Below, one piece after another: positions 16,184-60,974 of a stretch of 64,000 nt of DNA. Origin of the DNA: Linum tenue. Lineage: Eukaryota > Streptophyta > Magnoliopsida > Malpighiales > Linaceae. The stretch is from assembly GCA_946122785.1 (NCBI GenBank), contig CAMGYJ010000005.1:91010547-91074546 (forward strand), given 5' to 3'. Position 1 is the first letter of the stretch. Every line of letters begins with the position of its first letter. Under the pieces are notes generated by a model. The model ran no database searches, was not told the DNA's origin, and was given only the letters and a program-made list of their open reading frames with translations. Both the position numbers and the translations under genes were made by a program.

Positions 16184-16453
16184 AGGGGACGTTTGATTTT
16201 TTTTAAAATCCGGGGTACTGCATACCTTGAGTAAGAAAACGCTATTCAAAACTTGAATTGACTGATATTTCAGACATGATACTATACTCTAACACTTAAA
16301 TATCAAAATCTAGGTCTTAATTCTCTAAATCTTATACCCCAAGATCAATTTAATTAGAAAAAATAATTCCTGCTAATTAGAGGTCTAGATAGCGTTTTCA
16401 TACTCAAAGTATGCGGTACCCCGGATTTCACCCGGGGTACCGTAGGAGGCACC
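16184..16453. mobile_element. (TA)n-flanked inverted-repeat element, family A, copy 1
   Basis: The right end GGGGTACCGTAGGAGGCACC abuts a (TA)n tract. The left end GGGGACG followed by a T run and AAAATCCGGGGTACTG is a diverged version of the family A end, and is preceded by TATAGATAAATATA. Inner arms pair: CATACCTTGAGTAAGAAAAC with its complement near 16397-16412. It is 270 bases long and non-coding. Confidence 0.7.
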
Positions 16454-16465
16454 ATATATATATAT
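16454..16465. repeat. (TA)n tract between elements
   Basis: Twelve bases of AT repeat exactly separate two inverted-repeat elements. Confidence 0.9.
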
Positions 16466-16872
16466 GGTAACTACTTCGGTGCACTCACAAAAATGAATGC
16501 GTTCAATGCACCCAACTCAAAAACTAGTCTTAAGGTGTAGGATTTTGAATTTTAATTTGTAGAATTAGTGTAATATGATGATATAACAGATGATAACAAC
16601 TAATTAGTGGATTACCCTAAGCCCTAGACCTCCAATTTTGAGTTCTATCCCTAAACCCCAAATTGTAAACCCTAACCCTAAATATCTAAACTCTAAATCC
16701 TTCAAATTAAAGTAAATCTTCAATGGTTTTTGTGCAAATTCATGTGCGTTATTGTTCATCACATCATAAGTGATGAATGACATCATTTTGACATATATCA
16801 CATATTTAAAATGACGGTTATGAAGTGAGTGCACTGAATGCACCCAAAAAAGTGAGTGCACCGAAGACGCCA

Positions 16873-16874
<2 letters not shown>
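16466..16874. mobile_element. (TA)n-flanked inverted-repeat element, family B
   Basis: The left end GGTAACTACTTCGGTGCACT pairs with the right end AGTGCACCGAAGACGCCACC, and a second inner pair is AATGCACCCAA at both sides. Both outer ends abut (TA)n tracts. The 409-base interior is AT-rich with AACCCTAA-like words and no coding capacity. The terminal word (C)TTCGGTGC resembles the CTTCTACGGTGC end of the large element at 17338. Confidence 0.75.

Positions 16875-16908
<34 letters not shown>
16875..16908. repeat. (TA)n tract, 34 bases
   Basis: An uninterrupted AT repeat between the family B element and the second family A element. Confidence 0.95.
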
Positions 16909-16910
<2 letters not shown>

Positions 16911-17313
16911 GGAGTTCTATGGTACCCCGGGTGAAATCCGGGGTACCGCATACCTTGAGTAAGAAAACGCTATCTAGAACTTGAATTGACTAATCTTTCG
17001 GACATGATACTATACTCTAACCCTTAAAGATCAACATCTAGGTCTTAATTCTCTAAATCTTATACCCGAAGATCAATTTAATTAGAAACAATAATCGACG
17101 GTTATGATTCGTCCGAATACAGGTAAAAAAATCAATGCACCATCTTAGGGTTTATAGTTTATGATTTAGATAATTAGGACCTAGGGTTCACTCATTAAGG
17201 GTTAGGGTATAGTATCATGCCCAAAAGTCCTGGTAATTCGAGGTCTAGATAGCGTTTTTATACTCAAGGTATGCGGTACCCCGGATTTCACCCGGGGTAC
17301 CGTAGAAGGCACC
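16909..17313. mobile_element. (TA)n-flanked inverted-repeat element, family A, copy 2
   Basis: The left end GGGGAGTTCTATGGTACCCC and right end GGGGTACCGTAGAAGGCACC are the outer parts of an inverted repeat of about 65 bases, continuing inward with CCGCATACCTTGAGTA and CGCTATCTAGA on the left and complements on the right (17256-17300). Both ends abut (TA)n. It is 405 bases, non-coding. It matches copy 1 closely over TTCTCTAAATCTTATACCC. Confidence 0.85.
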
Positions 17314-17337
17314 ATATATATATATATATATATATAT
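17314..17337. repeat. (TA)n tract, 24 bases
   Basis: An uninterrupted AT repeat between family A copy 2 and the left end of the 13.3-kb element. Confidence 0.95.
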
Positions 17338-18186
17338 GATGACTTCTACGGTGCCCAGGGCAAAATCCGGGTACGGGTACCTTGGCCGATCTTAACCATC
17401 CATTTTCAATCTCCACGGCTCACGTTTGTTAAACCTAACTGCGCCACTAAATAACTAAACAAATTACAAAAAGCCTCTTGCCGCGTTAAGTTTGTTTTCA
17501 TCCTAGTCCAACTAACTGCCCCGATTAAATTAAATGGATTAAGACTGCAAACCCAATTGGGTAGACCCACTGCCGCCCTAACCAATTTCCAGTCTCCCTA
17601 ACCAATTACACGATCCCTCTCTCGTCTTGAAGGGATGCCCCTTCACAGTTCCAAGAGAAGCTCCCCATCCAATTTGAACTCCCCAACTTAATCATCTTTT
17701 TGAATCCCAATTACTTGCATCCACATTCGACGTAGATTGAATTTCCCAATTTATTTTGTCTTGTTTGTTCTTCGCCATTTTATTTCTCCTCGCCTATCTC
17801 TTTCTAACACGATTGCGACGACCATGTCTATTATTGTGTTCATCAAACTTTTCATTTGCAAAAGAACCCTTGAAAGAGGTTTGCTAACCCTAGGGTTCAT
17901 GTCGCTAGTGCTTTGTCATCTTGTCTTAGCGTTATTGTCATTTTCTCGAAACTTCTATCACTCGGTGAAATTAAGGTTTCCTTATATGTAGTGTTCGTCT
18001 CGCCCAGAGGATTGAGGAAGAAGATGAAGAAGACAAAATTTGATTCGAATCGGATGGAGAGGTCTCCTTAATTTGTGTTTATGTATTAACGGTGCGTTTA
18101 TGACTAATTCTAGTTGGACTGGGTCTGATCATTGATTTTTGCAAGCTTTTAAATAACATTCAAAAGTGGGCTTGTACATGACCCAT
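17338..18186 (+). repeat. Left terminal inverted repeat of the 13.3-kb element
   Basis: Pairs with 29692-30609. Three zones are visible: a conserved outer 40 bases, a diverged middle with a short matching island (CCCTAACCAATTTCCAGTCT at about 17576), and a highly conserved inner 380 bases. The inner zone contains an 84-codon frame (17737-17991) that is mirrored in the other arm, but its translation has no family motif and it is probably incidental. Confidence 0.85.
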
Positions 18187-18239
18187 GCAATATTCAAAAG
18201 TGGGTCTGGAACGTGCGAGCCCATTTCATTTCTCCTACC

Positions 18240-18248
18240 GTATAAATT
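18240..18248 (+). promoter_or_regulatory. TATA box upstream of the transposon-protein frame
   Basis: CGTATAAATTTG lies about 200 bases upstream of the ATG at 18438 and just inside the left inverted repeat. The position suits a promoter for the first plus-strand gene of the element. Confidence 0.4.
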
Positions 18249-18437
18249 TGTGCGCCAACCCTAGTTTAACTAGCTTTACTTACCCTAATTTAACCTACAC
18301 GAGTTACCATCATCATTACATATCTTCCGAAATCTTCTAACTCTTGACATTCCAGACTCAACCGTCTCCATACTCAACGCCCACGATCACTTTTTCTTAC
18401 ACCTACATTCTCTATTTCCTCCATCTTCACCTTCCCC

Positions 18438-19334
18438 TTGTTCCTTCTTCCTCCAGACGCCATTGCAAACAAAGGTAAATCGTTTGCTGAAATGGGGATA
18501 CTATCTCTATCAAATGAAGACTGCCGATCCACCCAAAGTCTCGGTGACTATCTTTCATTTACAAGCAAGACAACAATTGTGGCCGAGTACGAGTTCATCC
18601 GCCTAAGTCCTTTCCCTCCATAAGTGAATAAGTTAATAAAAAATGTTGGCTGGGAAAAGTTCTTTGATCTCTGGAGTCGAGGAAGCACCAGTTACTGCCC
18701 CCATGTGGTGAGGAAGTTCTACCACAATTTACAGCTTTCTGGTCCCTGTGATTCTCATCTCGTGTCGATCTTCCTGAGACATAGAGTTTGCTTCCAGCCT
18801 CATCAGTTTGCTGAGATCCTCGATCTTCCCGCCGGAGGACACCCCATAGAGAGCATAAGCGATCTTGGGCGGTTGTACGATTTTGAGTTTGAAGTTGAAC
18901 TGGCGAAACTCACGAAGGGGCGGATCCAGGCTTTTTTCCTCCCAGATCCTCTTCGATTCCTCCACTGGATGATCTCCAACTACTTCCTGCCAAGGTACCG
19001 TGGTCATTCGATTATTCGTAAACTTGACTTGGTTATCCTTGTGCAAGCTCAAAGAGGTGTTCCTGTTAACCTCGCATCTCTGATGTGACTGAACATGGTT
19101 GAGGCTGCTCCTAAAGGGGAAAACTGGTACACTGCCTTTCCATATGCCACCTTCGTGACCACCTTTCTTGAAAGGGTTGGGATGGATATGGGGGTTTATG
19201 TTAAGGAGGACCAGTGCGCTTATTTGCCGGTGTACCGTATAGCCGAATTGACCAATACTTTTATTGACCTTCGGCATACGGAGCATCAAGAGACCCCTGA
19301 GGCCTCCTCAAGCAAACGTCCTCGGCTTACATGA
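18438..19334 (+). pseudogene. Putative plant transposon protein (Transposase_32-like)
   Basis: One reading frame of 298 codons runs from ATG at 18438 to TGA at 19334, broken by TAA at 18621-18623 and TGA at 19086-19088 with no frameshift. Landmarks are VRKFYHNLQL, FLRHRVCFQPHQFAEILDLP, then WMISNYFLP, LVILVQAQRGVPVNLASLM and FVTTFLERVGMDMG. This order (VREFYANL, RG-x-x-v-x-F-s, lgLp, W-h-l-v-x-s-n-l-p, l-l-y-a-i, fp-x-l-I-t-x-L-c-x-x-a-G-V) is that of the putative plant transposon protein domain; the biochemical role is unknown to me. It ends in a basic SSKRPRLT tail that could be a nuclear signal. It is the first plus-strand gene inside the left TIR. Confidence 0.6.
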
Positions 19335-19626
19335 GAGTCGATTGATGCAGGGCGGGGTGGAGCGTTGGAGCAGCAAAGGGGCCAGCAATGAATGTCTTCT
19401 GTTAACAAGTTTCCTAAGTCTTTGTTGGTTTTTTTTCCAGTCTTTTGTCTTTTCCTTAATTCTCCAGCACTTAAAACTGTCAGGTACTGAGGGGAGCCAG
19501 TACATCATCTGACTAGGAAAGTCTCCCATTTTTTGAATTGTCCAGACCAATATTTTTCTATGCATGCAGTATTTTTTGAATTTGCCATGGCTAAGTTCCC
19601 TTAGACAGGTGACGAGATGCAGTAAT

Positions 19627-19860
19627 GGTCATATCCAATGGTGCAATTTTTGTGACTTGCAAGATGATGTGGCAAGGAGGTGCAATTGCATCTCTAAATT
19701 GCTATGATGTGAGAAGCTATTGCAAGGGTGCAAATTTGCATAAGAGCATATCCAATGGTGCAATTATAGTGACTTGCAAGCTGATGTGGCAATAAGTTGC
19801 AATTGCAACTTTGAATTGCATTGATGTGGGGTGCCCTTGCAAGTGTGCAAATTTGCTTGG
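19627..19860 (+). repeat. Tandem duplication, unit about 116 bases
   Basis: Two units share CATATCCAATGGTGCAATT, GTGACTTGCAAG, TGATGTGGCAA and GTGCAAATTTGC. Both are built from TTGCAA/GCAATTGCA words. A looser third relative extends to about 20035. Confidence 0.75.
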
Positions 19861-20824
19861 TGTGCAAATTTGCTTGCAATTGAAATGGGCACACGAGTGG
19901 GGACTATTGATGAAATTGCAATTGACTTTCATTGTTGGAGAGAGGATGAAGTTGAGAAGTGGTGTTTTCTCAAAATTATAGAAGTGGAAGTAGGGACTAC
20001 CTATGAAATTGCAAATGAATTTCATTGGGGGAGATTTTAATCCGCTTTTGTTCTAAGCAGTTCTAATTAGGTCGAAGAATGTGTTTACTTATTTCATCTA
20101 TGGTGATTTTTTTCCCTTTTTCATCAAGACTCATGCTTCTTTTATTCCCCCGGTGGATCTATGATGCTTCGTTTATAGTAAAATACCCTTTTAATTATAC
20201 ACAATAAAGAATAAATTAATTATGTAAGCCTTTTTATTGTATTTATTAATACAATAAATTCTCTCACTAAAAGGAGAGTGCATACATCGTTGGTGGAAAT
20301 TCAAGGAATGTAAGTCTTTCCATATCCTAGGAACATTAAATTAATTACCTAAGAATTTTCTATCTGCCTTGTACGGGTTTTGGTAATTAATTATGCTGAT
20401 TGGGAGCCAATCAGTTTTACTTTTTGGGTTAACTATACATGAATGCAAATTTAATTAGAAGAGGGCAATTGGGAACGAAGTGGAATGATATGATCTCAGT
20501 TAAACCTCTCTACAAGATACAATAGCTTTATCAAAAGCAACCTCATTCACAAGTTGGAAGCTGGAATTTTGGTCAAGCCCCTTTGCCATTTCGGGCAGCT
20601 CACTTTGGAAGCCTGTTCGTCACGCATGGCTCGATGAAAATGAGATTTTATTGATTTGTATTGAACCTGGGATATTTGTGAACACCAGGGATTACTTGGG
20701 AGCTGGAGATCAGGTCCAGAAGGTCCCTTTTCAGGTTGTGCAAATGTGTAATAGCCAGGTTAAAGCTAGATACTTTGAGACTCGATTCGGAAGGGATGGC
20801 TGTCCGAAAAGTCAATATAGTTTC

Positions 20825-20890
20825 CACAAAAAAACAAACCAAACCAAACCAAAACCAAACCAAAAAACAAACCAAACCAAAAAACAAATA
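20825..20890. repeat. CAAAC-rich minisatellite
   Basis: A run of imperfect ACCAAACCAAAC units with AAAAAACAAA interruptions. It generates spurious Phe/Trp-rich frames on the minus strand. Confidence 0.85.
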
Positions 20891-20992
20891 TAGAAAGCAT
20901 TCACCAAACCAAACCAAAAATGGTTGTCCATCATCTTGAAAAAAAAAAACATAACATGGTTGTCCATCATCTTGAACTCTTCGACTGAAGCT

Positions 20993-22225
20993 TCAACTTG
21001 AGGTGCAATTGTCCTTGCTTCCGTGAGCACCATATGCCTTGTAGTTCATGGGCTCTCGAACAAGGTACAAAGCAATCTGCATCCTCCTCACTTGAGTGCA
21101 TGGCTATAAACATCAACAAACATGGTGCTTAACGCATGATTCAAAAATAACAATCAAGTGTGGCTTTCTAATATGCGAACTAGAATTGTCTTTACCCAAA
21201 TATAAGAGGAGTCCCAGCTTGCGCCATACATTCACATGCAGACCCAGACTCCACTGTTAGACCTACATAAAATGAAAGCATCGCATGATAAACAAGTTGA
21301 TAAGCCGTCGTTTAATACACACAAAATGGGCATACTTACCGATGAAGTTGTTATTGATCATTTGAAGGATTTGTGTACGAAAACTCTGCAATCCTCGGTG
21401 GCGACAATCCTGGAAATTGTTGACGATAGAGAATCTTCCACAAGGCTTTCATAAATCTCATCTGTACAAATTAAGAAATGTTTGTATTTAGAAAGAGTTA
21501 TTTACATTTTTTTGTGTTATAACGGCACAATGTCACAAATTTACCATTGTTTGAACAGATTGTAGTCGAAAGGAATTGCGGTCTTCATTTGGTTGTGGAT
21601 CCAAGATATGGACTTCTTCCTTGTCCAACTTAATGACAGCCAAGTACCAATGGGCATTATCTGTCATCGGAACACACACCTACATATGCGGAAATTGTCA
21701 ACACGTATTAAAAAAATAAACTGCAAACCATGTAATACTTATTAAGACTAAGGAATTTTGACTCGTATAGGTCTAATGCCCTCTTGGGTGTTATTCCACA
21801 TGAAATCACTAGTTCCTGCCCATGTGGTAGTTGCACAATTGAAATTTTGTCAACACAATATCATTCACGCTAAAAAAACATGTGTTGTATTTTTTTGGTG
21901 AGAGGAAATTAATCTTAAGCATAATCGGAGCAGAACCTGTAGTTCAGCAGGCAGATAGCACACTCCTTTTTCGTCCTTAGAATTTGTCGACAACTCTTCT
22001 AGAGTCAAATGGCAGGCCACCGCTGTTATAACCTAATATAACATGGACAAAAAACACTTCATGATACTATAGATTTGTTACAAAATAATTCTACGTAGAA
22101 AGCATTGATAGTGGACAAACAAAACAAAATTTTGGAGTTCCGTTGATTACTTCAGCATCTACGAATGAGCGAGGGCTTAAGGACCACAATGATAGTGGAA
22201 CCACTGCTCTACCGCTGAAGATTAA
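20993..22225 (-). pseudogene. Ulp1-like cysteine protease (peptidase C48), decayed
   Basis: Spliced minus-strand exons can be followed: about 22225-22151 (LSPRSFVDAE), 22032-about 21945 (VITAVACHLTLEELSTNSK), about 21875-21760 (KFQLCNYHMGRN, two-base loss, DFMWNNTQEG), 21679-21545 (VCVPMTDNAHWYLAVIKLDK then HILDP), 21461 onward (LWKILYRQQFPGL) and an exon reading SNSGVWVCM. Exon phases match at GT-AG junctions. His (HWYL) and Asp (ILDP) of the C48 triad are present, but the expected DCG nucleophile block reads NSG, so the cysteine is missing. Stops occur after SNDQ and after VCM. The end, MQIALYLVREPMN, resembles the usual C-terminus. In plant MULEs and CACTAs such proteases are common cargo (family knowledge). 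It lies divergent to the transposase, with about 480 bases between them. Confidence 0.7.
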
Positions 22226-22703
22226 TTATATATACAAGGTTAGGATAAAATGTGGCGGCATATTTTTCCCGCGGAAAAATAGTTAGGGTTTAGTCTAAGG
22301 TACATGAACTTGGGATAAACATGGGTAGTTATTAAACCTAAAATTAAAAATATACTTTTTTCGATTGAATAAAAAATTGAGTGCTATTAGTAAATATTCG
22401 CTCATATTAATGTTTGATCCTTCCCCATACACGTAGTACCCAGCTAGAGTCAGCTGGCGTTTGGCTTTACTAAGCATACCTTTTCATTTTAAATATTTTC
22501 GTTATTTATGAAAATGGTAAAGAAATCAATAAGATAAAGAATAGAAAGTTCAACTCGTTCCTACCAAAAAAATAAGATATCACAAATCGTGTTATTAATG
22601 GGGATAATTATTAAATGGCCCATTGAAGCATTAATTCGCCTATCATTCCCAGTAGGGTTTTGTAGTTTACATCCTTGGTTCCCCAAAATTTCCAGCAGTG
22701 ACA
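22226..22703. promoter_or_regulatory. Divergent intergenic region between protease and transposase
   Basis: About 480 bases between the most upstream recognisable protease exon (-) and the transposase ATG (+). It is AT-rich and carries no recognisable coding motif; a 60-codon minus-strand frame is not convincing. By position it should hold both promoters, but no unambiguous TATA pair was identified and the protease may have additional 5' exons here. Confidence 0.35.
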
Positions 22704-25463
22704 ATGACGTCGGCGGCAGACCCACCATTGACGTCGGAGGAAGTCCTACTATTGACGTCGGAGTCAGTCCAAGAAAACGCTGGTGTCGGAGCTAGTCACA
22801 CCACCCAGGAAGATAATGTCGCCGATCTCATATTTCTACAGCCTGAAGATTTTAAAAAATGAAGTTCGATGATACAGAAGAAGCCTATGATTTCTACATG
22901 GACTACGGGTTAGTTAAAGGCTTCGACATCAGAAAATCAGACATTGGTCGTGATAAGAACAAAGTTATGATATGGCGTGACTATGTATGCTCTGGCAAGG
23001 GAAAGAGGCGCATGAAGAGCACAAAACGAAAGAGAGAAGCAAGAGGGGAGACCAGATTTAACTGCAGAGCCAAAATGCGTGTTAAACAAGACAATGTCAA
23101 TGGGAAGTGGTATGTGCACCAGTTTGATGATGTACACACACATGAAACGGTCCCCAGATAATATAGACACTACATGAAAGGGAAACATCGTATGAGTGAT
23201 GCAGTCAAAGCAGCGATAAATTTTAGAAGAGCTGCAGGTATGAAAACTTCTCAAATTGTGAATCTGGCCGTATCAGAAGCAGGAGGCTACGACAATTTGG
23301 GGTACACGAGGAAGGATGCATATAATTATGTGGACAAAGAGAGGAAAGAACAAATCAGTGAAGGTGATGCCGCAACATCCCTAGCCTACCTGCAAGCTAA
23401 ATGCAGCATGGATGATCATTTCGTTATTGAACTAAAGAAGGATGACGACGACCGGCTTATTAACATCTTGTGGGCCGATAGTATTTCTGTTGCTGATTAT
23501 GCATGCTTTGGAGAATTACTGTCATTCGATGCTACTTACAAAAGGAACATTTACCAGATGCCTCTCGTGATTTTTTCAGGTACTTTTCCTTCACACATAG
23601 AATTATCCCGAGCATGCTAAAATAACCCTAGCAGTTTGCATAATCTAACTTATTTTGTACTTTTTTAGGTGTCAACCACCATTCGCAAACTTGCGTATTT
23701 GCATGTGCTTTCTTGGCTAACGAGAGAGAGGAAAATTATATTTGGGTGTTGGGAGCTTTGAAGAGAAGGCTAGGTGGTGTAGATCCCAAGACTTTATTAT
23801 AGATGGGGATAGAGCAATGCGTAATGCTATTCAGAAAGTATTTCCCGATGCAACACATCGTCTATGTTCCTGGCATATAGACAAGACTATAACCAGAAAT
23901 GTGAAGAATCATCCTACTTTGTTGCCCCGATGGAAGCATTTTGTGACAGCTGACTGGGAACCTTCAGAATTCGAAGAAAAGTGGAAATCAGTGGTTGAGG
24001 AATGCTCCCTTCAGCACAACAACTGGGTCTCCAATTTATTTGAGCAAAGACATGAATGGGGGTATGCATATTTGCGTTCGAAGTTCTTCGCAGGCTTGAG
24101 TACAACATCAAGATGTGAAGGACTGAACTCTCAACTTGCCAATTATATCGAGAAGGATAAAAATCTCCTTGAGTTCTTTATTCACTTTGATCGTTGGACT
24201 AGGGATCTGAGGGAGAATGAGCGTCATGCTGATTTTGAATCGATTCATCGAGAACGAACTATCACAAGCAATGTCTTAGTCTCACTTCAGAAGAGTGGAG
24301 CGGCAGTTTTCACAAAGAACGCATTCTTCTTATTCAGAGATGAGGTTGAAAAGTCGGCATGTTGCATAAGGGTGGAGTCAGAGCGATCGGAAATGGAGCG
24401 TGTGTACCAGGTCAAGGTATCTGGCATGGATAAGGTTTTTCAAGTCACGTACACAGTTGAACCCTTTGCAATGGAGTGTAGTTGTAATCACTACGATTAT
24501 ATGGGAATACCATGTCGTCATATGATTTTTGTACTGAAAGAAGAGAGTATACTGGAACTTCCTGAAGGCCTAGTACGTCGAAGATGGTCAAATAAGCCGA
24601 AGACACTAGAGAGCTTGGAGGAACGGGACATAAATAGCTGAATCGCAACTTTTCGCATTGAGGTTTGCCATGACTATCACTTTTTTTTTTTAATATTGGT
24701 TCGAAGCTAGGTGAACGTTAATTTTACTCACTTTGTATAAAATATTGTGTCAATCAGGTATGGTACTATTCAACAAAACAACTTACAACTAATGTTAAAA
24801 GGGGCAAAATCTAGTGAGTGCTTCAAGATTGCTCGTGAGGGAATTCAATCATTATATGAAAAGCTGGACATGGTGGACACTGGCAACGTGGACCTACCCG
24901 GCATTAATAGACCGAAGGCGAATGAAATTTTGTTGGATCCATTGCAGGTCAAAGCTAAAGGTTCGGGGGCTAAAAAATCTAAAAGGAAGAAAGGAGAACC
25001 ACGACAGTGTAGCAATTGCGGTGAATTTGGCAACTATAGGACCCGATGCCCACATCTTGTTGGCTATGTGAAGCCAACCTCAAACGGTGATGCCCCGAAT
25101 GCTGGTGTTTCGGAAGAAGGTGGCGGTGGCGATGACACCGATGTTGATCCTCCAACCACTCAAGATCAGTCGCAAACAGTACCGAAGAGAAGCCAAAAGC
25201 ATTGCACTAAGTGCGATTCTACCAATCATAATGCAAGAACGTGTACTGGGTCTGGGCCATCCAATGATAAAAATGACGATGATGAAAATGACGATGACGA
25301 CGATTACGAGCAACCTAGGGTAAGAATAAAATATAATTGTTCGTGTCTACACAATGCAGTTGCATCCAAAATTTTTGTACGACTAAAATCGTCGTTATCG
25401 ATTTTGCAGAAGAGGCATGTTACCAGAAGTAGCAACCTAAGGAACAGAGATTTGGACACTTGA
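22704..25463 (+). pseudogene. FAR1/FHY3-type MULE transposase, four exons
   Basis: Exons 22704-23579, 23669-24662, 24758-25319 and 25410-25463, all with GT-AG introns in matching phase, give about 820 residues. In order: an acidic N-terminus (MTSAADPP); a FAR1 DNA-binding zinc finger (EEAYDFYMDYG, YVCSGKGKR, CRAKMRV, HTHE); the MULE core with Asp in LLSFDATY (23528), Asp in IIDGDRAM (23802), C2H in HRLCSWHI and Glu in SRCEGLN (24117); a SWIM finger (CSCNHYDYMGIPCRHM); RYGTIQQNNLQLMLKGA; and two zinc knuckles, the first with His replaced by Asn (CSNCGEFGNYRTRC), the second complete (CTKCDSTNHNARTC). An acidic tail follows. Breaks: one base lost in the A run near 22852, TAA at 23159-23161, a one-base shift near 23797 and another near 24636. 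The catalytic DDE residues survive. Confidence 0.85.
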
Positions 25464-28318
25464 GTTCTTCGGAATACATGTGTAAAAGGGCTGCAACTAT
25501 TTGATCAGTGTTGAAAACTTGAAGTGAAGATGGAAGTCCTTATCCTATTCGGATTAGGATTATGTGAAGACTGCCACTGTCAGCTTGAAGTGGCGTCGTT
25601 TGGTTTATAAAAAGACTGTTGCCTTCTGCGGTGTCATTTTACTTATGTGTCTCTTTGGTTTATAAGAAGACTGCTGGTTTATGCGGTGTCGTTTTATTTA
25701 TGTGTCTCTTTGGTTTATAAGAAGACTACTGCCTTATACGGTGTCGTTTTATTTAGTTCGGATGGATTTGATTTAAATCATGTGCAACATTTCAGATGAG
25801 TAATTTTTCTCACTCGTTTTTTTTATTGAATTATTATATCGTATTTTTTACTTGTTTATAAATTTATTTAATTTTGGCTACTAAAATTATGAAATGAAAA
25901 TTTTTCTTTTTCCATTTGACTTTATTATTTTAGGCGTGAAATGACAAGAGCATGCGGCGACAGATGAGCAAAGTTCGAAATCCGGAAAAAATACTGTTGG
26001 CCCAATAGTAAAATACTTCTGAAAATGGAGGCAGTAATCAAGAAATAAACTACAGTATTTTTATTGAGTGAAAGATCCCTCACTGATATATTATTAAGAT
26101 CTCAAACACTAAAAGTACAAATCTTGAAAAACAAAACAATGTACTTTCCCTCCTCCCACTTTTATACTATACTACATATGGCAACTTTCCCCTCTTGTAT
26201 ATATTTTCGGAGCATGATCAACATGTACGCTTCAATATTGCACAAAAGAACCATCATGTGACGTAGGGTTCCACAACACCTATTATGGAATCGTAACAAC
26301 ATATGATGATTCTTTCGGCAATATTCAGACGACGACTTATTGTCATTGCTCCCCTCCCTGCCTCTAACAAAGGCCCTGTATGGAGAGAAAAGAAGAAACA
26401 ATAAAACGAAAGAGTTAGTTTAACAGTCATGATCTAACAATGATCTAATGAAAGGAACTGAGATCTAAAATAATACGCAGTCTCATCATTACCACTACAC
26501 CCGAAAATAAAGCATGGGACAGGAGGACGAAGAGGCGGATGGGGTTGATTTTCAGAGTTTCATATCGAGAAGATGGGAGAAAGGGGTATTTTCAGGGATC
26601 GAGAGGAGGAGGAACGAACAACGGCAGGAGATGAGTGCCTCTCGGGTTTCGGAGCATGGTCTCTCCTTCTCTGATTAAAGAATTTATAAACGGACTCATA
26701 AAATTACTTTGCCTTTCCAGCCCTTCCCATTTACTGAAAATCACACTCCCTACCGCTGCCTCGGCCTTGGTAACGTCAGCACTGGCTATGGGCAAATGCT
26801 ACTTTCCGAAAACGGAAAAATCTGATTGGGTGACACGCCACGGCAAGGATTGAAGGTCTTTCACCATCGGATTAAAGGAAAAGTTTGGGAATTAACGACG
26901 GGAGATGGTGATGTGCTTTTAGACTGGCTTTGTAGATTAACTAACTTTTTCGTTTATCAAAATTAATCTATTGCTTTGGTATATGTTATTGCAACCTTAA
27001 ACCCTAAACCCTAAACCAAACCCTAATACCCGAACCAATCAATACCATATACTCTATAACAATAACACCTTATACCCTAACCAATCAATACCATATATGG
27101 AAGATTTCATTAGATGAAATTCAATATGGAAGAGGCAAAGTGGGCCCACTTCAATTGGTTAGAGAGTATACAAATTATTTGTTGTATTATAAACGTGAAT
27201 AGGGCCCACCATATGAAATTGAAAGTAGATTTCATGGATGTAGACAAAATGGAAGTGAAGAGATGAAATTGTAAAAGGTGTATACATGGCGGTAGGGGCC
27301 ATAAATGAAATAGTTAGGCTATTTCATGGCTATTTCATGGTTGTTAATGGCTTCATCCCCAACTTTTAGCAATTGCTAAAGATGAGGTGGAGCTTAGATG
27401 GCAAAAACATAGAAATGGTTTAGGGAAGGCAAAAGCATTGCAGTAAGTGCTGTTCTACCAATCATAATGCAAGAACGTGTACTGGGTCTGAGCCATCCGA
27501 TGATGAAAATGACGAGCAACCTAGCGTAAGAATAAAATATAATCGTTCGTGTCTACACAATGCAGTTGCAACCAATATTTTTGTACGACATTCCTCGTCG
27601 TTATCAATTTTGCAGAAGAGGCATGTTACCAGAAGTAGCAACCTAAGGACCAGAGTTTTGGACACTTGATTTCTTTGGAATGCGTGTGTAAAAGCCTGCA
27701 ACTATTTGATCAGTGTTGAAAACTTGAAGTGAAGATGGAAGTCCTTATCCTATTCGGATTAGGATTATGTGAAGACTGCCACTGTCAGCTTGAAGTGGCG
27801 TCGTTTGGTTTATAAGAAGACTGCTGCCTTCTGCGGTGTCGTTTTATTGATGTGTCTAATTGGTTTATAAAAGAAGACTGCTGGTTTATGCGGTGTCGTT
27901 TTATTTATGTGTCTCTTTGATTTATAAGAAGACTACTGCCTTCTACGGCTATGGGCAAATGCGACTTTTCAAAAATGGCGAAATTTGATTGGGTGACACG
28001 CCGCGACAAGGATTGAAGCTCTTTCACCATCGGATTAAAGGAAAAGTTTAGGAATTGACGGGGGGAGATGGGGATGTGCTTTTAAACTGGCTTTATAGAT
28101 TAAACTTTTTCGTTTAGCAAAATTAATCTACTGATTTGGTATATGTTATTGTAACCCTAAACCCTAAAAAATTTAAACCCTAAACCCTAAGGGAGATAAG
28201 GGCCCACTTTAGAAATTGCTTATTGATTGTCACCATCTCCATCCCCAACTTTTAGCAATTGCTAAAGATGAGGTGGAGCTTAGATGGCAAAAACTTAGCG
28301 ATGGTTTAGGGATGGAGG
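25190..28318 (+). repeat. Duplicated 3' tail of the transposase region
   Basis: Segments 25190-25745, 26787-27025 and 27345-27425 recur in order as 27430-27945, 27942-28190 and 28238-28318. The second copy therefore equals the first minus about 1.0 kb and 0.3 kb of internal sequence. The repeated part includes the second zinc knuckle, the third intron and the last coding exon. Intervening 25764-26790 has only short frames of no recognised family. Confidence 0.8.
26994..27025 (+). repeat. Short CCCTAAA run
   Basis: Two to three CCCTAAA units (plant telomere motif) in tandem. A similar run sits in the duplicated copy at about 28155-28190. Too short to suggest an interstitial telomere. Confidence 0.7.
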
Positions 28319-28419
28319 AGTTCTTTCTAAACTAGGAAGATTGCTAAATTATGAATGCTTCTAGCAATGCCACATAGATAACTATTCTCTTTTTCTATTT
28401 TATTGTTTATTAACTTTTC

Positions 28420-29605
28420 TTGCCCAACTAAAGTACATATGTACTTCAAAATTGAAATTCTAACTTTCTGTTCTAAACATAAATTAAAAATTGATAGTCG
28501 CTAAGTATCAAACCACAAACATCTACTTTATTAACTCAGCAAGTAAAGGACAATTAACCAATTAAGCTACATGACATTTATAATCATCATGTGAAATTTC
28601 GCTTTCTTATTAAGTGAAGGGTTAAAATGAACGGTAAATATATCATAGTGGATTTTTTCTGCTTCGTGGGGGAGTGAGAGAGTGGAAATGGTGAAATTAA
28701 TGAAGAGTTAAATTGGACGGATTGTCTTTAGCACGCCACTACAAAATCCTTCGGAGCAAAAACATGCAGGTTCAAATCAAACAATAAATGAAGAAAGATG
28801 AACTTAATAACTCTAACTAATTTTCATTCCATATGTGGCGAATGGCTAATGGCCGTGATCACCAACAAGGCAAAATAGATAATAGGAACCTACCTTGCAC
28901 ACACCAAATCATTTTATCTCGTACCGATAAATGTGTCATGCTACAATAATTATGTCAAAGTTTTTTTAGTAATAAGGCATGATCAACATTTATAAGCAGA
29001 TATAAAGAAAATATAAAATCGAGAAAAAAATAAAACAACTCCTACCCTCACCCTTTAACCAATCAATACCATATGCTCTAAACCATCAACACCTTATAAC
29101 CTACCCATATACCATATACTGTATATCATCAACAACCTAATACCCTAAGCAGTCAGTACTCATTTCCTTTAACATCAACACCTTATACAACAATCGTATA
29201 CCTATACGCTGATAAAATTTTACATTTTGAAAATACTTGCTCAACTAAAGTACGTAGGTACTTAAAAAGTGAAATTCTAACTTTCGTTTCAAAACATAAA
29301 TTATAAAAATATCTTCACTCAGTATCCAACCACAAGCCTCTAATTAGTCTACAAGAGGTTTGTTATGTACGAGTGCATTGCATGAAGAGGGGCAATCAGT
29401 GAGAGAGTGGAATAGGATCTCAATTAATGAAGAGTTAAATTGGGCGGATTGTAGTTTACCTCGTACCGCTAAATGTGTAAAGAGACACGCTAGCATTTAC
29501 CAAATCCCAAAAAAAGAGGGAACACATAATTATGTTTAACTTGCGTGAACTCAAGGCATGATCAGGATTTTAGAAGCAGAAGCAGATGAAAATAAGTAAA
29601 ACAAA
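28420..29605 (+). repeat. Diverged direct duplication, 28420-29040 and 29235-29605
   Basis: Shared blocks in order are GAAATTCTAACTTTC, AAACATAAATTA, GTGAGAGAGTGGAA, TTAATGAAGAGTTAAATTGG and TAAATGTGT with AAGGCATGATCA. About 0.75-0.8 kb separates the copies. The spacer has TCAACACCTTATA-type repeats also seen near 27060. No gene. This forms the subterminal region beside the right TIR. Confidence 0.65.
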
Positions 29606-29691
29606 GAACCGCCACTGAGATAGACAATTATCAAAGGCCCAACCTAATGACAATCCGGAACTCAGTATCTATTATCAACAAACTAGGTGCG

Positions 29692-30609
29692 ATGGGTCAT
29701 GTACAAGCCCACTTTTGAATGTTATTTAAAAGCCTGCAAAAATCAATGATCAGACCCAGTCCAGCTAGAATTAGTCCTAAACGCACCGTTAATACATAAA
29801 CACAAATTAAGGAGACCTCTCCATCCGATTGGAATCAAATTCTGTCTTCTTCATCTTCTTCCTTAATCCTCTAGGCGAGACGAACACCACATATCAGGAA
29901 ACCTTAATTTCACCAAGTGATAGAAGTTTCGAGAAAATGACAATAACGCTAAGACAAGATGACAAAACACTAGCAACATGAACCCTAGGGTTAACAAACC
30001 TCTTTCAAGGGTTCTTTTGCAAATGAAAAGTTTGATGAACACAATAATAGACATGGTCGCCGTAATCGTGTTAGAAAGAGATAGGTGAGTAAATTCCGTC
30101 CGGTAATAAAATAGCGAGGAACAAAACGTCGATTTGTGGATACAAGGATTTGGGATTCAAAATGATGATTATGTGAGGATTTCATATTGGATGGGGATCT
30201 TCTCTTCGAATGTGGATACATAGATTTGGTGTATGAAACATGATGATGTTGGGGATTTGAGATTGGATAGGGAGCTAAATCGAATGTGGATCAAATAATA
30301 AAAGGATTTGGGTTTCGAAACGATGATTTTGTTGGAGATTTCAGATTTGATAGGCAGCTTATGATCGAACTTCGAACTAAGAGGGGACCCTCCAAGACGA
30401 ATGAGGCATCGTAGAAGGGAGACTGGAAATTGGTTAGGGCGGCGGGTCGTATCCATAGGGGTTAACCTCTTAATCGATATAATTAAACCGGGTACAGTTA
30501 GGTTGAAGTCCAATGAAAAAAGCTTAAACGCTTTGTGATGCTTTTGGTAATTTTCCTTGCCCCCGGTTACCCGTACCCCGGATTTTGCCCTGGGCACCCT
30601 AGAACTGCC
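29692..30609 (-). repeat. Right terminal inverted repeat of the 13.3-kb element
   Basis: Inverted copy of 17338-18186. It is longer because a roughly 70-80-base unit (30137-30360; words GAATGTGGAT, GATTTGGG, GATGAT, TTGGATGGGG) is present three times where the left arm has one. The outer end reads, on the minus strand, GCAGTTCTAGGGTGCCCAGG, and abuts TATATATATA. Confidence 0.85.
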
Positions 30610-30619
30610 TATATATATA
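30610..30619. repeat. TA tract at the right end of the element
   Basis: TATATATATA immediately outside the right inverted repeat, matching the much longer (TA)n outside the left one. Confidence 0.85.
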
Positions 30620-50649: not shown

Positions 50650-52003
50650 GTGTGCCTTCACACCTTCGGGAGTTGCTTCGGAGCCGTTCTGCCTTCGGGG
50701 TGGGGTGTTATGAATAACTTCATGCCGCATAAGGCATTTTTGTGGAGTCTCTATGCCTTTGGGGTGGCGATTTATGAGCGATCTCCTGCCTCAGAAGGCT
50801 TTTTGTGGTTGGGTTGTTCTACCTTCGGGGTGGCGTGTTATGAACAACCCTACTTTGGAAGGCTTTTTATGGAGTCGCTCTGCCTTTGGGGTGGCGATTT
50901 ATGAGCGATCTCCTACCTCGGAAGGCTTTTCGTTGTTGGGTTGTTCTGCCTTCGGGGTGGCGCGTTATGAACAACCCTACCTCGGAAGGCATTTTATGGA
51001 GTCGCTCTGCCTTCGGGGTGGCGTTTTATGAGCGATCTCATGCCTCGGGAGGCATATATCTTCGAGCTAAGCCCGGATATGGTAGGCAAAAGTCCACGAG
51101 CCTTGGTGAGTTGCTCCGGAGTTGTTCTGCCTTCGGGGTGGTGTATTATGAACAACTCCATGCCTCAGAAAGAATTTTTGTGGAGTCGCTCTGCCTTCGT
51201 GGTGGCGTCTTATGATCGATATCCTGCCTCGGATGGCATTTTGTGGTTGGGTTGTTCTATCCTCGGGGTGGTGTGTTATGGACAACCCTGCCTTGGAAGG
51301 CATTTTATGGAGTCGCTCTGCCTTCGAGGTGGCGTTTTATGAGCGATCTCTTGCCTCAGGAGGTATAAATCTTCGAGCCAAGCCTGGAGGTGAGAGGCGT
51401 ATGCCTTCGGGCCTTGGGGCATTGCTCCAAGGTTGTTCTACCTTCGGAGTGGCATGTTATGAACAACTCGATGCCTCGGAAGGCATGTTTGTGGAGTAAC
51501 TCTGCCTTCGGGGTGGCGTTATATGAGTGATCTCCTACCTCGGGAGGCATAAGTCTTCAAGCCTTGCCCACAAGCCTTGGTGAGTTGCTCCGGAGTATTT
51601 CTGCCTTCGGGGTGGCGTGTTATGAATAACTTCATGCCTTACAAAGCTTTTTTGTGGAGTCGGTCTGCCTTCGGGATGGCATGTTATGAGCAATCTCCTG
51701 TCTTGGAAGGCATTTCTTTGTTGGGTTGTTCTGCCTTCGGGTTGGCGTGTTATGAACAATCTTGCCTCGGAAGGCATTTTATGGAGTCGCTTTGCATTCG
51801 GGGTGGCGTTTTATGAGCGATCTCCTGCCTCGGGAGGCATAAATCTTCGAGCCAAGCCCGAAGACGGGAGGCATAAGACCACGAGCCTTGGTGAGTTGCT
51901 CCGGAATTGTTCTGCCTTCAGGGTGGTGTGTTGTGAACACCTTCATGCCTCATAAAGCATTTTATGGAGTGCACTGCCTTCGTGGTGGCATCTTATGAAC
52001 AAT
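50650..52003 (+). repeat. Minisatellite, subunits about 75 bases, left part
   Basis: Subunits built on TCTGCCTTCGGGGTGGCG, TTATGA(A/G)C(A/G) and CCTCGGAAGGCATTTT(A/G)TGG recur about fifteen times and are grouped in larger blocks that begin GAGTTGCTCCGGAGTTG (about 50665, 51110, 51584, 51896). All long frames here (repeated FGVAxYER-type words) are by-products of the repeat. The array is split by the hAT at 52012 and resumes at 53218-53335. Confidence 0.88.
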
Positions 52004-56505: not shown

Positions 56506-59500
56506 TCAAAAGAACATACAGACAACTGAAGGATCTACAACCACCCTAATATTACCTTGGACCCTCTGAACCAGAGCATGGAACTCATCTTTCTTCCCTG
56601 CAAGTTTAATCAAACATCTCTCTCTCCAAATTGATGCAATGAGAGCATGCCAAATCAGCTTTCCAGTTTGTGCTAAGACAGTGGCACCTTTGAAAGCAGT
56701 TAAGGCCCACTGAAGCTCACCATCCCATTGATCACCTGGAACTCGATCTGCAAAATTGCCAAACAAAGCTGCAAACAGCTGTTTAAACCTAGAGCACTCA
56801 GCAAAAAGATGCGATCTTGTTTCCGGGCTACAAGAGCAGAAAGCACATCCAAAATCACCAGAACCACCCCATCTTTGAACCTTCTCTCCAGTTACAATAC
56901 AATCAGTAATGACCAGCCAAACTAGGAATTGATTCTTTGGGATGCTAGTTCCTTTTCAAACCAGTTTCCCCCAAGATACAATACCCTGTTTTGGACGAAG
57001 CTCCTCCCAAATCTTCCTTATGCAGAATTTTTCCATAAGAGCACCTTTCCAGTAAACTCCATCAGCAGCAACAGAGAGCAGCCCCCTGAGTTTATCTCTG
57101 ATTTTCAAGACTTTCTGCCATAACCAAGACCCTGCTTTAGAGGTAAGAGTCCAGAAACTGCCCCCTTTTATACGATACTCCCAGAGCCAAGCAGCCCATA
57201 ATGACCCTTGCCTAATCAACACAGCCCAGATATGCCTAACCACACAAGCAAGATTCCAAGTATGCATATCTTTGAGACCAAGCCCCCCTTCATGTTTAGG
57301 ATAAGTGATTCGAGACCAAGCCACCACTGCTTTCCTCCTGGCCCCCTCTCCTACTCCCCATAAAAAATCACTGCACATTTTCTCTATAGCCTTAATGATA
57401 GCCTTAGGTAAGATGAAAATTGACATCCAAAAGTGGGCAAGACTAAACAGCACAGACATCACCAGTTGGAGTTTGCCAGCATAAGAAAGTGTTTTTGACT
57501 TCCAGCTACTGATTCTACTCGTAACTTTATCAATGAGAGGCTTACAAGCCTTAATGGAAAGCTTACCAGGGAGCAGAGGAAGACCTAAGTATCGAACTGG
57601 CAGTGACCCCAACTTATACCCTGAATGCTGAGACATCAGCTTCTGCCATTGATCATCAATACCTCCACAATAAAGCTCACACTTGGAAGGATTTGACTTC
57701 AAACCAGACATGTATCTAAACTCATTCAATACCTTTTGGATACACTGAATTCCAAAATTTGATCCATCAGAGAATAATAAGAGATCATCCGCAAACATTA
57801 AATGAGTAATCCTCAATCTTTTGCACAAGGGGTGGAAGGGCATGGCATTTTGAGCAACAGCTTTATGCATCAAGCAAGAAAAGACCTCCATGGCCACAGC
57901 AAAGAGGTAGGGGGAAAGGGGGTCCCCCTGCCTCAAACCCTTCTTGGCTGGGAAGAAACCTACTGACCCTCCATTAAAACCAATACTGAACTTTGGTGTG
58001 GTGACACACATTCTCAACCAGTCGAGAAATTTAGATGGAAAGCTCATAGCTTCAAGCACTCTAAACAGAAAAGCCCAATTTACAGAGTCAAAGGCTTTCA
58101 TTAAGTCAACTTTAACTAAAGATCTGGAGGAGATATTTTTCCTACCATATTTATGAACTAGTTCATGTGCCAACAATATGTTTTCCCCAATGACTCGACC
58201 CTTAACAAAGGCAGTTTGGGATTCACTAATGACACAAGGCATAACTGCACTTAATCTAGTTGCAAGTATCTTGGCTATGCACTTATAGAGAATGTTGCAG
58301 CAAGCAATTGGTCGAAAAAACTCCATTTCTTCAGGGCTAGGGACTTTAGGTATAAGGGCTAAAAGTGTGGAATTAACACTGACATGGATATTAGACACTT
58401 GAAAGCAATATAAGATAGCACTTGTTACCTCAGCTCCCACAATACTCCAAGCTACCTGAAAGAAGCAAGCTGGATATCCATCAGGTCCAGGGGCTTTGTC
58501 CCCATTAAAGCCAAACATTGTGGCTCTGACTTCCTCTGCAGTGACTGGTTTGCATAAGTCGACCCCCTGATCAGGGAGCAACTTCTTTAACAATAAGCTT
58601 CTGAGCTGATCTACCTTAGGAGCAACCACCTCTTTATCTTCCTCTCCCAATAGCTTTATGTAGAATTCTTCTGCTATCTTAGTCATACCCTCCAAATCAG
58701 TAACCCTATGACCAGCCTCACCAATAAGAGACCTAATCATGTTTCTCTTCTGTCTAGATTTAACTGACCTGAAGAAATAAGGAGTGTTTGAATCTCCCTC
58801 CTTCAACCAAACTTTTCTAGATTTTTGTCTAAAAAATGACTCCTCGGCATCTCTCAACTCTTTTGCTTCCTTAGAGAGCCTATTCTCAGCCTCAAATGTA
58901 AGTGGTGATGGGTGATTCAGAGCTTCTGCCTGAGCCAGAAGTAACTCAGCAGCTTTCAGCTTCACTGTTGCAGACAAATCAGAATACACCTCTCTGTTGA
59001 GTTTCTTTAACAAGCCCTTCAATATCTTCAGCTTCTGACATACTCGTACCAAAGGAGAGCCAACTACTTGTGAACTCCATGCCTGTTTGACCAACTCCAT
59101 GAATTGAGGGTGCTGAATCCAAAATTTAAAAAACTTGAACATTTTTGGCAATGATTTCACTGAACAGTCAGAGTCAAGCAGAATGGGGCAGTAATCTAAG
59201 ACTGAGGGATCAAGGAGATCCACTGTACTCAAAGGCAATTCAGTCAACCATTTAGTGTTTATAAAAACTCTATCAAGCCTCCTAGCTATTGGATTACCCT
59301 ACTGCTTATTAATCCATGTAAACCATGGCCCTAAGGCCTTGTGCTCTTCCACCTCACAATCATACTTCCACTTTCTGAAGTCAGACATACTACTAGATAC
59401 TTGAGGTTGATTTGAAGCTTCACTTGGGTCTCCAATAGCGTTGAAGTCCCCTAAAACAGTCCATGGGAGTGAATCCACTTGATATTTAACCAACTCAGAA

Positions 59501-59850
59501 TAAAGGCACCTTCTGTCAGCCTCCTCATTTGAAGCATAGATGACAGAGAAAAAGAATGGGACCCCTGACCCAACCATAACATGAATAAGTTGATCTGTTG
59601 TATGTAAAACCTGAAGTTTAATGTCAGCCTTCCACAGAAGCCACAACTTCCCCAGACCAGCAACATTATTAGAAACTTTAGACTTCCAACCAGAGAAACG
59701 CCTATTTATCAACTCATCAGCTTTATTACTTCTAACTCTAGGTTCTAGTATAACTACAATATCTATACTATGTGTATTAATCAGCTGCTGTACAGCTTTA
59801 TTCTTATCCGGGTCATTAAACCCCCGGATATTCCATGTGAGTATCTTCAT
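56506..59850 (-). pseudogene. LINE ORF2: endonuclease, reverse transcriptase, zinc finger
   Basis: One frame of 1115 codons with two nonsense codons only. The endonuclease starts MKILTWNIRGFNDPDKN, with ILEPRV and GDFNAI. A TAG at 59299-59301 follows NKQ. The reverse transcriptase has GFNGDKAPGPDGYPACFFQV, RPIACCNILYKCIAKILATR, KVDLMKAFDSVNW, LRQGDPLSPYLFAVAMEV and the catalytic HLMFADDLLLFSDGS; the LGLPLLPGK thumb and WKSKTLSYAGKLQL follow. A TGA at 56956-56958 replaces a Trp before a zf-RVT-like block (IPKNQFLVWL, CAFCSCSPETRSHLF). The polypeptide stops at 56506. Catalytic residues survive; only the nonsense codons disable it. Confidence 0.92.
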
Positions 59851-60893
59851 TTCTTCTTTCCAATTCTCCCCCCTTTACGAGGAAGAACAGGCTCAATCAC
59901 TCTTGAAGTAGTAGACTTCTTCTTGGAGCCAACAGTTATCCAAGGATTTGCCTCTTTTACAATTGCTGGAGTCTGAGTAACTAGCTTCCCTGAACCAGGT
60001 GAACTAGCTACAACAGGCTGTTGTAGTAGGGAACTAGGACTCCCAGTATCAACTGATGATCCCAGAACCACATCCACAAACCTAGCATTTGCATTTCCAT
60101 TTGGAGGAGGAATATTTGAGACATCCTGAACACTCACACTGGTAGCCACAGGTTCTGTTGACTGTGTTTTGTCAAGCAGCACAGCACTAACCACAGATTG
60201 AACTATATGACCCTCTTCAGTTCCAACTCCATCTTGCAATTCAGACCCAACCCCAGAAGACTCCCCAGAAACAACAAGAGCAGCCCCCGAATCTGTCACA
60301 ATATTAGACTGAACCTTCTGCTTTACTACCCACTTCTTATTGCTTCGAGCCAAAGCATTGCAATCATGACCATAAACAGCACAGACTGGACAGACCCTAG
60401 GTAAATTCAGATATTCTACTTCCACAGCAAAACTTGGATCCTCATCAGGGTAAAGACGGATCGAGGAGGGGAAGCCACAATCCGCAGCAAGATCAACACA
60501 TACTTTGGCATATCCCAGCTGCCCCCCCACCCTTGTGGTTTTATCCATCCAGAGAGGAGGGCCAACCGTGCTAGCAACCCATTCCAACCCTTCCACCGAG
60601 TGGTACTCCAGAGGAATACCCCAAATGTCAACCCAGATAGGAAGAGATTCTACCTGAGGAGCAACTGGATGTATCCCTGGCGCCCACTTCCTGAGATAGA
60701 GCTGATTTCCTTGATAATGCCATGGTCCTGATTTGAACACCCACCTGCTGGTTGAAGCCGAAGGAAACTGGAAAATGAACAATCGAGGCCCAAATTTGGA
60801 CACCCGGACAGTCCCATCTCTTCCCCAAATTGAGGTAGCCCACGTCTGCAACTGCGCCACCTTGGGTTGAGCTCCAACGAACTGCCCGATCAA
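59847..60893 (-). CDS. LINE ORF1: DUF4283 nucleic-acid-binding protein
   Basis: About 348 residues without a break. The N-terminal DUF4283 region shows IGQFVGAQPKVAQLQTW, LFIFQFPSASTSRWVFKSGP, WAPGIHPVAP, PIWVDIWGIPLEYHSVEG and YAKVCVDL. A zinc-knuckle-like CPVCAVYGHDC follows, then a Ser/Val-rich tail ending in basic residues (RKGGRIGKKK). The frame stays open upstream (GEERWQNCLIGQ), so the true start is probably 5' of 60893, which is not an ATG; the start given here is only the last in-frame candidate. ORF1 proteins bind LINE RNA (family knowledge). It ends overlapping the ATG of ORF2. Confidence 0.85.
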   Translation of the reverse strand: MIGQFVGAQPKVAQLQTWATSIWGRDGTVRVSKFGPRLFIFQFPSASTSRWVFKSGPWHYQGNQLYLRKWAPGIHPVAPQVESLPIWVDIWGIPLEYHSVEGLEWVASTVGPPLWMDKTTRVGGQLGYAKVCVDLAADCGFPSSIRLYPDEDPSFAVEVEYLNLPRVCPVCAVYGHDCNALARSNKKWVVKQKVQSNIVTDSGAALVVSGESSGVGSELQDGVGTEEGHIVQSVVSAVLLDKTQSTEPVATSVSVQDVSNIPPPNGNANARFVDVVLGSSVDTGSPSSLLQQPVVASSPGSGKLVTQTPAIVKEANPWITVGSKKKSTTSRVIEPVLPRKGGRIGKKK

Positions 60894-60974
60894 GCAATTT
60901 TGCCAACGCTCTTCCCCTTTTTGTTTGACCTCCCGAGGGATGCGAAACCCATCCTTAACACGCTCTGGATGATG

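What the first reader, a model, noticed from the sequence alone, without database searches (positions are those of the whole stretch)
17338..30609. A 13.3-kb MULE-type element with long TIRs, a FAR1-type transposase and a Ulp1-like protease, bounded by (TA)n
Seen directly: inverted arms of 849 and 918 bases, matching outer ends, and TA tracts immediately outside both. Between them are a FAR1/SWIM MULE transposase, a C48-type protease in divergent orientation and a putative transposon protein. Known: Ulp1-carrying MULEs exist in plants and many lack long TIRs. Inference: this is a long-TIR relative whose insertion preference is TA microsatellites. The 9-base MULE duplication would be hidden in such a tract. 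The combination may not have been described.
Basis: partly seen in the sequence, partly recalled or inferred. Interest (0 to 1): 0.88.

Follow-up and report, generated by a model that had tools for sequence, protein, structure and literature searches.

The report
TA-tract-homing jumping gene of flax
A 13-kilobase jumping gene in a wild flax genome belongs to a family of closely alike copies that sit beside stretches of repeated TA, and besides a transposase gene it carries a relative of SUMO-cutting enzymes with serine in place of the key cysteine, so that protein would likely hold the SUMO tag without cutting it.

Summary
Window 17338-30609 is a Mutator-like element (MULE) with inverted arms of about 852 and 922 nt, a FAR1/SWIM MULE transposase, a divergent C48 (Ulp1) gene and a PF20167 ORF, flanked by (TA)n. 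The assembly is Linum tenue (contig lengths equal those of NCBI-labelled proteins). It is one of many: all 40 scored left ends (of 447 candidates) are 98-100% identical, 30 of 30 fetched left ends follow a TA tract, and nine of ten copies followed for 20 kb reach a matching right end (9.3-16.4 kb; TA outside 8 of 9). The window copy is broken; two of ten others have stop-free transposase frames. Neighbouring TA-separated MITEs with similar ends form the unnested array called SaTar. TA-targeting long-TIR MULEs and Ulp1-carrying TIR MULEs are both published; my searches listed no element with both. The unexpected detail: the C48 nucleophile position is Ser in 9 of 9 copies that carry the gene, as in the SENP2 chains of PDB 5aek and 2io0. 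SUMO binding without cutting is inferred; weak constraint (dN/dS 0.63-0.80) leaves decay open. A genome-wide Ser/Cys count could not be run.

The parts
17314..17337 (.). (TA)12 tract at the left boundary, shared with MITE2
17338..18189 (+). left inverted arm (~852 nt); outer ~40 nt and inner 17789-18186 best conserved
18492..19331 (+). PF20167 ('putative plant transposon protein') ORF, 280 codons, two in-frame stops in this copy
   Evidence: 40.1 bits, cut-off 45; 90% to P0121 of L. trigynum
21153..22187 (-). Ulp1/C48-like gene, exons by homology, most of exon 1 missing, two stops; motif Q-x5-Ser-Gly in place of Q-x5-Cys-Gly near 21250 (bounds approximate)
22704..25463 (+). FAR1-MULE-SWIM transposase gene with C-terminal Cys-rich motifs; likely intron 23580-23668; frameshifts near 22853-22858 and 23790-23800, stop 23159-23161
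25186..29345 (.). repeat-rich tail, with a second partial copy of the transposase 3' end at 27422-27870
29688..30609 (-). right inverted arm (~922 nt)
30610..30619 (.). (TA)5 tract at the right boundary
16206..16453 (.). MITE1, a MITE2-like element lacking its left end
16454..16465 (.). (TA) tract between MITE1 and MITE-B
16466..16874 (.). MITE-B, a second TA-flanked inverted-repeat element family
16875..16908 (.). (TA)17 tract between MITE-B and MITE2
16909..17313 (.). MITE2, whose two ends match the element's two ends at 19 of 23 bases each

Best explanation
[quoted passage not shown] The enzyme would bind the conserved ~40-base ends, cut the element out and insert it in (TA)n; the tracts left on either side would then receive further elements, which builds unnested arrays. 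The same transposase would likely move the neighbouring MITEs, whose ends are alike. The divergent Ulp1-like gene keeps the expected His, Asp and Gln but has Ser at the nucleophile position, so its protein is predicted to hold SUMO without cutting it, and might shield SUMO-marked transposase or chromatin. Shown: anatomy, copies, TA flanks, arrays, the Ser. Inferred: mobilisation, target choice by the transposase, and every role of the Ulp1-like and PF20167 proteins.
For: 40 of 40 scored left ends at 98-100% over 119-123 bases, 447 candidates in the first look. TA tract before 30 of 30 left ends, run lengths 5-66 nt in 28, two bases between in L017 and L025; outside 8 of 9 right ends. Same gene order in eight of ten copies, the other two internally deleted. 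An opposed Ulp1 first exon 2.5-12 kb inside 21 of 40 left ends, against 0.04 on average in 200 shuffles. DDE motif residues intact in each copy that holds the piece, and no stop in the transposase pieces of two of ten copies. MITE2/MITE-B-like pieces within 150 bp of 11 of 30 left ends. dN/dS between window and other copies 0.31-0.39 for PF20167 and 0.32-0.49 for transposase. Ser in 8 of 8 relatives and the window and in P0127-P0129.
Against: No transposition was seen and no empty site was compared; TSDs cannot be read in TA. One of nine right ends (C9_30.10) has no TA outside. No fetched copy has all three genes open. Ulp1 constraint is weak, dN/dS 0.63-0.80. Within the young group transposase dN/dS is noisy, 0.13-3.07. 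The structure models failed, so SUMO binding has no structural support here; the PDB matches are weak (E 0.018 and worse).
Confidence: 0.8

Rival explanations
1. The Ulp1-like gene is passenger debris: a captured protease gene that lost its nucleophile once in a founder copy and is carried along without function.
For: dN/dS 0.63-0.80 between the window and eight copies over 173-174 codons; Ser would disable the protease (recalled); papers say transposon Ulp genes are weakly expressed (PMC6117577, passages).
Against: All six exon pieces are open in six of eight copies; the same gene, about 91% alike over the aligned part, is annotated in L. trigynum (P0130).
Confidence: 0.5
2. The TA tracts are not a target but arise from the element: its insertion or repair makes or expands (TA)n from other AT-rich sites.
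For: MuTAnT flanks are longer than empty sites (means near 12-15 against 9 repeats; PMC4486113, parts 1-2 read).
Against: In MuTAnT the empty sites are themselves TA repeats (same paper). Here 30 of 30 left ends have TA, and unrelated MITE families share the tracts.
Confidence: 0.12
3. Chance nest: two dispersed repeats around a FAR1-related host gene, not one transposon.
For: Many hits in other plants are named FAR1-RELATED SEQUENCE 5.
Against: The same arm-genes-arm order recurs on several contigs, and 28 of 30 left arms run into the same interior to the end of the fetched stretch.
Confidence: 0.01

Closest known systems
MuTAnT / AutoMuTAnT, Medicago truncatula (PMC4486113; parts 1 and 2 of 4 read)
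   Same: MULE with a Jittery-like transposase inserted in (TA)n microsatellites, with many small non-autonomous relatives; that FAR1-type transposases belong near Jittery is recalled.
   Different: AutoMuTAnT is 4.9 kb with one ORF; here 9-16 kb with Ulp1 and PF20167 genes and arms of 0.85-0.92 kb.
SaTar elements and autonomous AgS-/ArS-MULEs of guayule and rice, including Micron (PMC5907723; passages)
   Same: Long-TIR MULEs and MITEs at microsatellites, stacked without nesting, ends shared between large and small elements.
   Different: The AgS-MULE1 described is 5.3 kb with 400-bp TIRs; the words ulp, protease and FAR1 do not occur in the main text. SaTars also use non-TA repeats.
Ulp1-carrying TIR and non-TIR MULEs of grapevine, melon and rice (PMC2528002; passages)
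   Same: TIR-MULEs with a Ulp1 domain, either orientation, including Jittery-like families.
   Different: Ulp1 lies downstream of the transposase in grapevine; here upstream and divergent. No TA targeting in the passages seen. Catalytic Ser not mentioned there.
Kaonashi (KI) MULEs and VANC/KIU proteins, Arabidopsis (PMC13317346, PMC6117577, PMC6117582; passages; original papers not read)
   Same: MULE with a C48 gene opposite to the transposase; suggested anti-silencing role for KIU.
   Different: Non-TIR; C48 domains described as intact or potentially catalytic, whereas here the nucleophile position is Ser.
Pineapple Ac-mMITEs (PMC8449440; passages)
   Same: Mutator-like MITEs in (TA)n, often clustered.
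   Different: No autonomous partner was found in pineapple.

Membership tests
Mutator-like element (MULE) | MULE transposase domain with DDE residues | tested here: met
   PF10551 E=2.3e-27; D, D and E motif residues kept in the copies that hold those pieces; which residues are catalytic is recalled
Mutator-like element (MULE) | terminal inverted repeats | tested here: met
Mutator-like element (MULE) | 8-11 bp target site duplication | tested here: inconclusive
   flanks are (TA)n on both sides in the window and 8 of 9 copies, so no duplication can be read; copies outside TA were not sought
TA-microsatellite-targeted MULE (MuTAnT/SaTar-like) | ends abut microsatellites | tested here: met
   30 of 30 left ends, 8 of 9 right ends
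TA-microsatellite-targeted MULE (MuTAnT/SaTar-like) | unnested stacking with small elements with like ends | tested here: met
   window array; neighbours at 11 of 30 left ends
TA-microsatellite-targeted MULE (MuTAnT/SaTar-like) | empty sites that are TA repeats | not tested
   no second accession at hand; paralogous empty sites not sought
Kaonashi (KI) MULE | no terminal inverted repeats | tested here: not met
   long arms present
Active C48 (Ulp1) cysteine protease | C48 domain | tested here: met
   PF02902 E=7.3e-8 for the window, 1.6e-9 for copy C9_30.10
Active C48 (Ulp1) cysteine protease | nucleophilic Cys in the Q-x5-C-G motif | tested here: not met
   Ser in 9 of 9 copies with the gene and in P0127-P0129; aligned to SENP2

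The most novel reading that the evidence does not exclude
A spreading plant transposon has turned a captured SUMO protease into a SUMO trap: a family-wide Ser at the catalytic Cys, the same exchange that sets SENP2 of PDB 5aek and 2io0 apart from that of 1tgz, leaves a protein that holds SUMO-marked partners instead of freeing them, and shields the transposase or its chromatin from silencing while the element stacks itself in TA microsatellites.
Probability: 0.2. Interest if true: 0.7.

Novelty: new variant of a known kind. Interest (0 to 1): 0.42.

Why it matters
It joins two known habits of plant MULEs, homing to TA microsatellites and carrying Ulp1 domains, in one family that is still young, in a chromosome-scale assembly where target choice and stacking can be tested. 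If the Ser-for-Cys protein binds SUMO, it would give a direct handle on the open question of why plant transposons keep Ulp1 domains; if it is decay, it is a clean case of a spreading transposon that no longer needs one.

Tried and rejected
Chance nest of dispersed repeats: rejected by the copies. AlphaFold models of P0127 and P0121 had mean pLDDT 41 and 34, so no fold search was made and the folds stay untested. I first took the window's Ser motif for a private loss of the catalytic Cys; the other copies showed that it is family-wide. Genome-wide counts of Ser against Cys codons, of TA-adjacent against other ends, and of PF20167 and transposase copies were asked for and not answered. Empty sites were not sought. 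Identities of 73-86% come from copies with deletions or insertions in a fixed 2.25-kb slice and were not used for age. The printed line says 1000 shuffles; the script ran 200. Of the ten copies followed for 20 kb, chosen from the top of the hit list, L010 was passed over. For one search I copied 126 first-exon rows from the part that was shown (224 matches, 150 of 1498 candidates scored, not all listed) and dropped rows for other exons. For codon counts only copies with gap-free frames were used: PF20167 three of ten, transposase seven of ten, Ulp1 eight of ten, each with the window; codons with stops were dropped. PMC9569675, the one paper with all five terms, was looked at (passages): the Ulp1 and microsatellite passages shown are entries of its reference list.
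Full report
What is there. Window 17338-30609 is bounded by inverted arms of about 852 and 922 nt. The arms are a mosaic: the outer ~40 nt match at 94.6%, an inner block of ~400 nt at 95.8%, the part between at 73-85% with insertions. Of the nine relatives with both ends fetched, six show the inner block at 93-95%; three (C4_29.29, C10_8.46, C9_30.10) share about 110 nt of it at 89-91%. The outer ends match at 92-97% in all nine. The arms thus diverged in the family's past and only the outer ends are kept alike in each copy, which fits a transposase-binding site (inference).

Genes. On the + strand a PF20167 ORF (18492-19331, two stops); on the - strand a multi-exon Ulp1/C48-like gene (about 21153-22187); on the + strand a FAR1-MULE-SWIM transposase (22704-25463) with two frameshifts, one stop and a likely GT-AG intron. 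The Pfam hits rest on read-through proteins with X at lesions. The PF20167 hit, 40.1 bits, is under Pfam's cut-off of 45, but the ORF is 90% identical over its whole length to a 280-residue L. trigynum protein that carries PF20167. The tail, 25.2-29.3 kb, is repeat-rich and holds a second partial copy of the transposase 3' end.

Host. The best transposase match is a protein labelled Linum tenue, 93% over 58% of the query. The contig lengths given for the L. tenue proteins P0001 (72,476,498) and P0127 (91,441,714) equal those of C2 and C5 of the window's own assembly. So the window is from L. tenue. L. trigynum has related proteins: P0121, in a cluster of 28, and a partial Ulp1 protein, P0130.

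A family. The left 123 bases gave 447 first-look candidates; 40 were scored, the window among them, and all 40 are 98-100% identical. Of the 30 fetched, 28 run into the same interior to the end of the fetched stretch, L009 is deleted from 18725 to 24683, and L010 stops matching at 18083. Ten others, from the top of the list with L010 passed over, were followed for 20 kb: nine reach the matching right end, 9.3 to 16.4 kb long; the tenth (C10_39.26) carries a ~7-kb insertion. All three genes are recognisable in eight of ten; C8_57.44 and C11_12.43 are internally deleted. Independently, an opposed Ulp1 first exon lies 2.5-12 kb inside 21 of 40 left ends, 20 of them at 4.7-6.2 kb, against 0.04 on average in 200 shuffles. 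Both lists were cut, so this is a lower bound: two copies read directly (C5_36.39, C10_8.46) have the exon but were not in the list. Ulp1 first exons also occur at about a hundred listed places away from these 40 ends; whether those lie in further copies of this family or in others is not known.

Target. TA tracts precede 30 of 30 left ends: runs of 5-66 nt in 28; in L017 and L025 two bases intervene; L030 lacks the first end bases. TA lies outside 8 of 9 right ends; the ninth (C9_30.10) abuts sequence like that inside MITE2. All four (TA)>=5 runs of the 64-kb window abut element ends.

Arrays. Left of the element lie MITE1, MITE-B and MITE2, separated by TA tracts, none interrupting another. 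MITE2's two ends match the element's two ends at 19 of 23 bases each. MITE-B ends match them at 11-14 of 23; 14 was reached by 9 and 4 of 40,000 random window 23-mers, but 11 by 357 and 345, so the MITE-B likeness to the right end is weak (one base of the right end was supplied from other copies). A MITE2- or MITE-B-like piece lies within 150 bp of 11 of 30 left ends, the window included. This is the SaTar pattern of PMC5907723 (passages).

Activity. Two of ten copies (C9_30.10, C2_29.15) have transposase pieces without stops. PF20167 is open over 280 codons in two of ten. Ulp1 is open in all six exon pieces in six of the eight that have it. No fetched copy has all three open. Six copies without large changes are 96-99% alike over the left 2.25 kb, and the window copy is 93-94% from them. 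dN/dS between the window copy and others is 0.31-0.39 for PF20167 (three copies) and 0.32-0.49 for transposase (seven copies, 233-235 codons); within the young group it is 0.92-1.05 for PF20167 and scattered, 0.13-3.07, at very low dS for transposase. This suggests selection on the source lineage and little since insertion. For Ulp1 the value against the window is 0.63-0.80 in eight copies, too weak to claim constraint.

The serine. After the last splice junction the eight relatives with the gene read D-S-G-V-W-V-C-M, and the window reads N-S-G-V-W-V-C-M. The annotated proteins P0127, P0128 and P0129 end in S-D-S-G-V, which supports the junction. A Gln lies six residues before the Ser, the spacing seen in SENP2 in the alignment. 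The best, weak, PDB matches are SENP2 chains: 5aek and 2io0 have Ser at this place (E 0.018 and 0.02), 1tgz has Cys (E 0.085). That the Ser chains are engineered catalytic mutants, and that such mutants bind but do not cut SUMO conjugates, is recalled. KIU domains of Arabidopsis MULEs are described as intact or potentially catalytic (PMC6117577, PMC6117582; passages). Whether other Linum Ulp1 copies keep Cys is not known: the pattern searches did not complete.

Known or new. TA-targeting MULE with a Jittery-like transposase: PMC4486113 (parts 1 and 2 of 4 read). Microsatellite-targeted long-TIR MULEs with arrays: PMC5907723, whose main text holds no 'ulp', 'protease' or 'FAR1'. Pineapple TA MITEs: PMC8449440 (passages). 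Ulp1 in TIR-MULEs, either orientation, and in Jittery-like MULEs: PMC2528002 (passages). VANC/KIU anti-silencing: PMC13317346 (passages). Flax transposons: PMC3544724 (passages; no 'microsatellite'). Searches that bear on the combination listed no paper that by title, abstract start or passages joins TA targeting with Ulp1; most listed papers were not opened, and only open-licence papers are held. Verdict: a real, young family, a new variant of a known kind.

Noticed in passing
56956-61022, - strand: Long open frames of 780, 191 and 391 aa whose sequence looks like a LINE-type reverse transcriptase, endonuclease and gag-like protein; identification by eye, no search made.
   Followed up: no
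50680-51840: Tandem array of ~64/127-bp units over about 1.2 kb.
   Followed up: no
25186-25870 and 27422-27990: Direct duplication, 90-95% alike, of the transposase 3' end and the following repeats about 2.2 kb apart.
   Followed up: partly
G000:C8:1557850 and G000:C8:83291214: Groups of Ulp1 first-exon matches with nearly equal scores (86% and 88% identity) at many places, perhaps other subfamilies or another element; the letters could not be fetched.
   Followed up: partly
L010 (G000:C10:37460415-37463535): Left end whose interior stops matching at 18083, while an opposed Ulp1 first exon lies 10.0 kb inside, so an insertion of about 5 kb is likely.
   Followed up: no
18624-19307, - strand: A 192-aa open frame lies antisense to the PF20167 ORF, without a Pfam match; probably a by-product of the coding strand.
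   Followed up: partly
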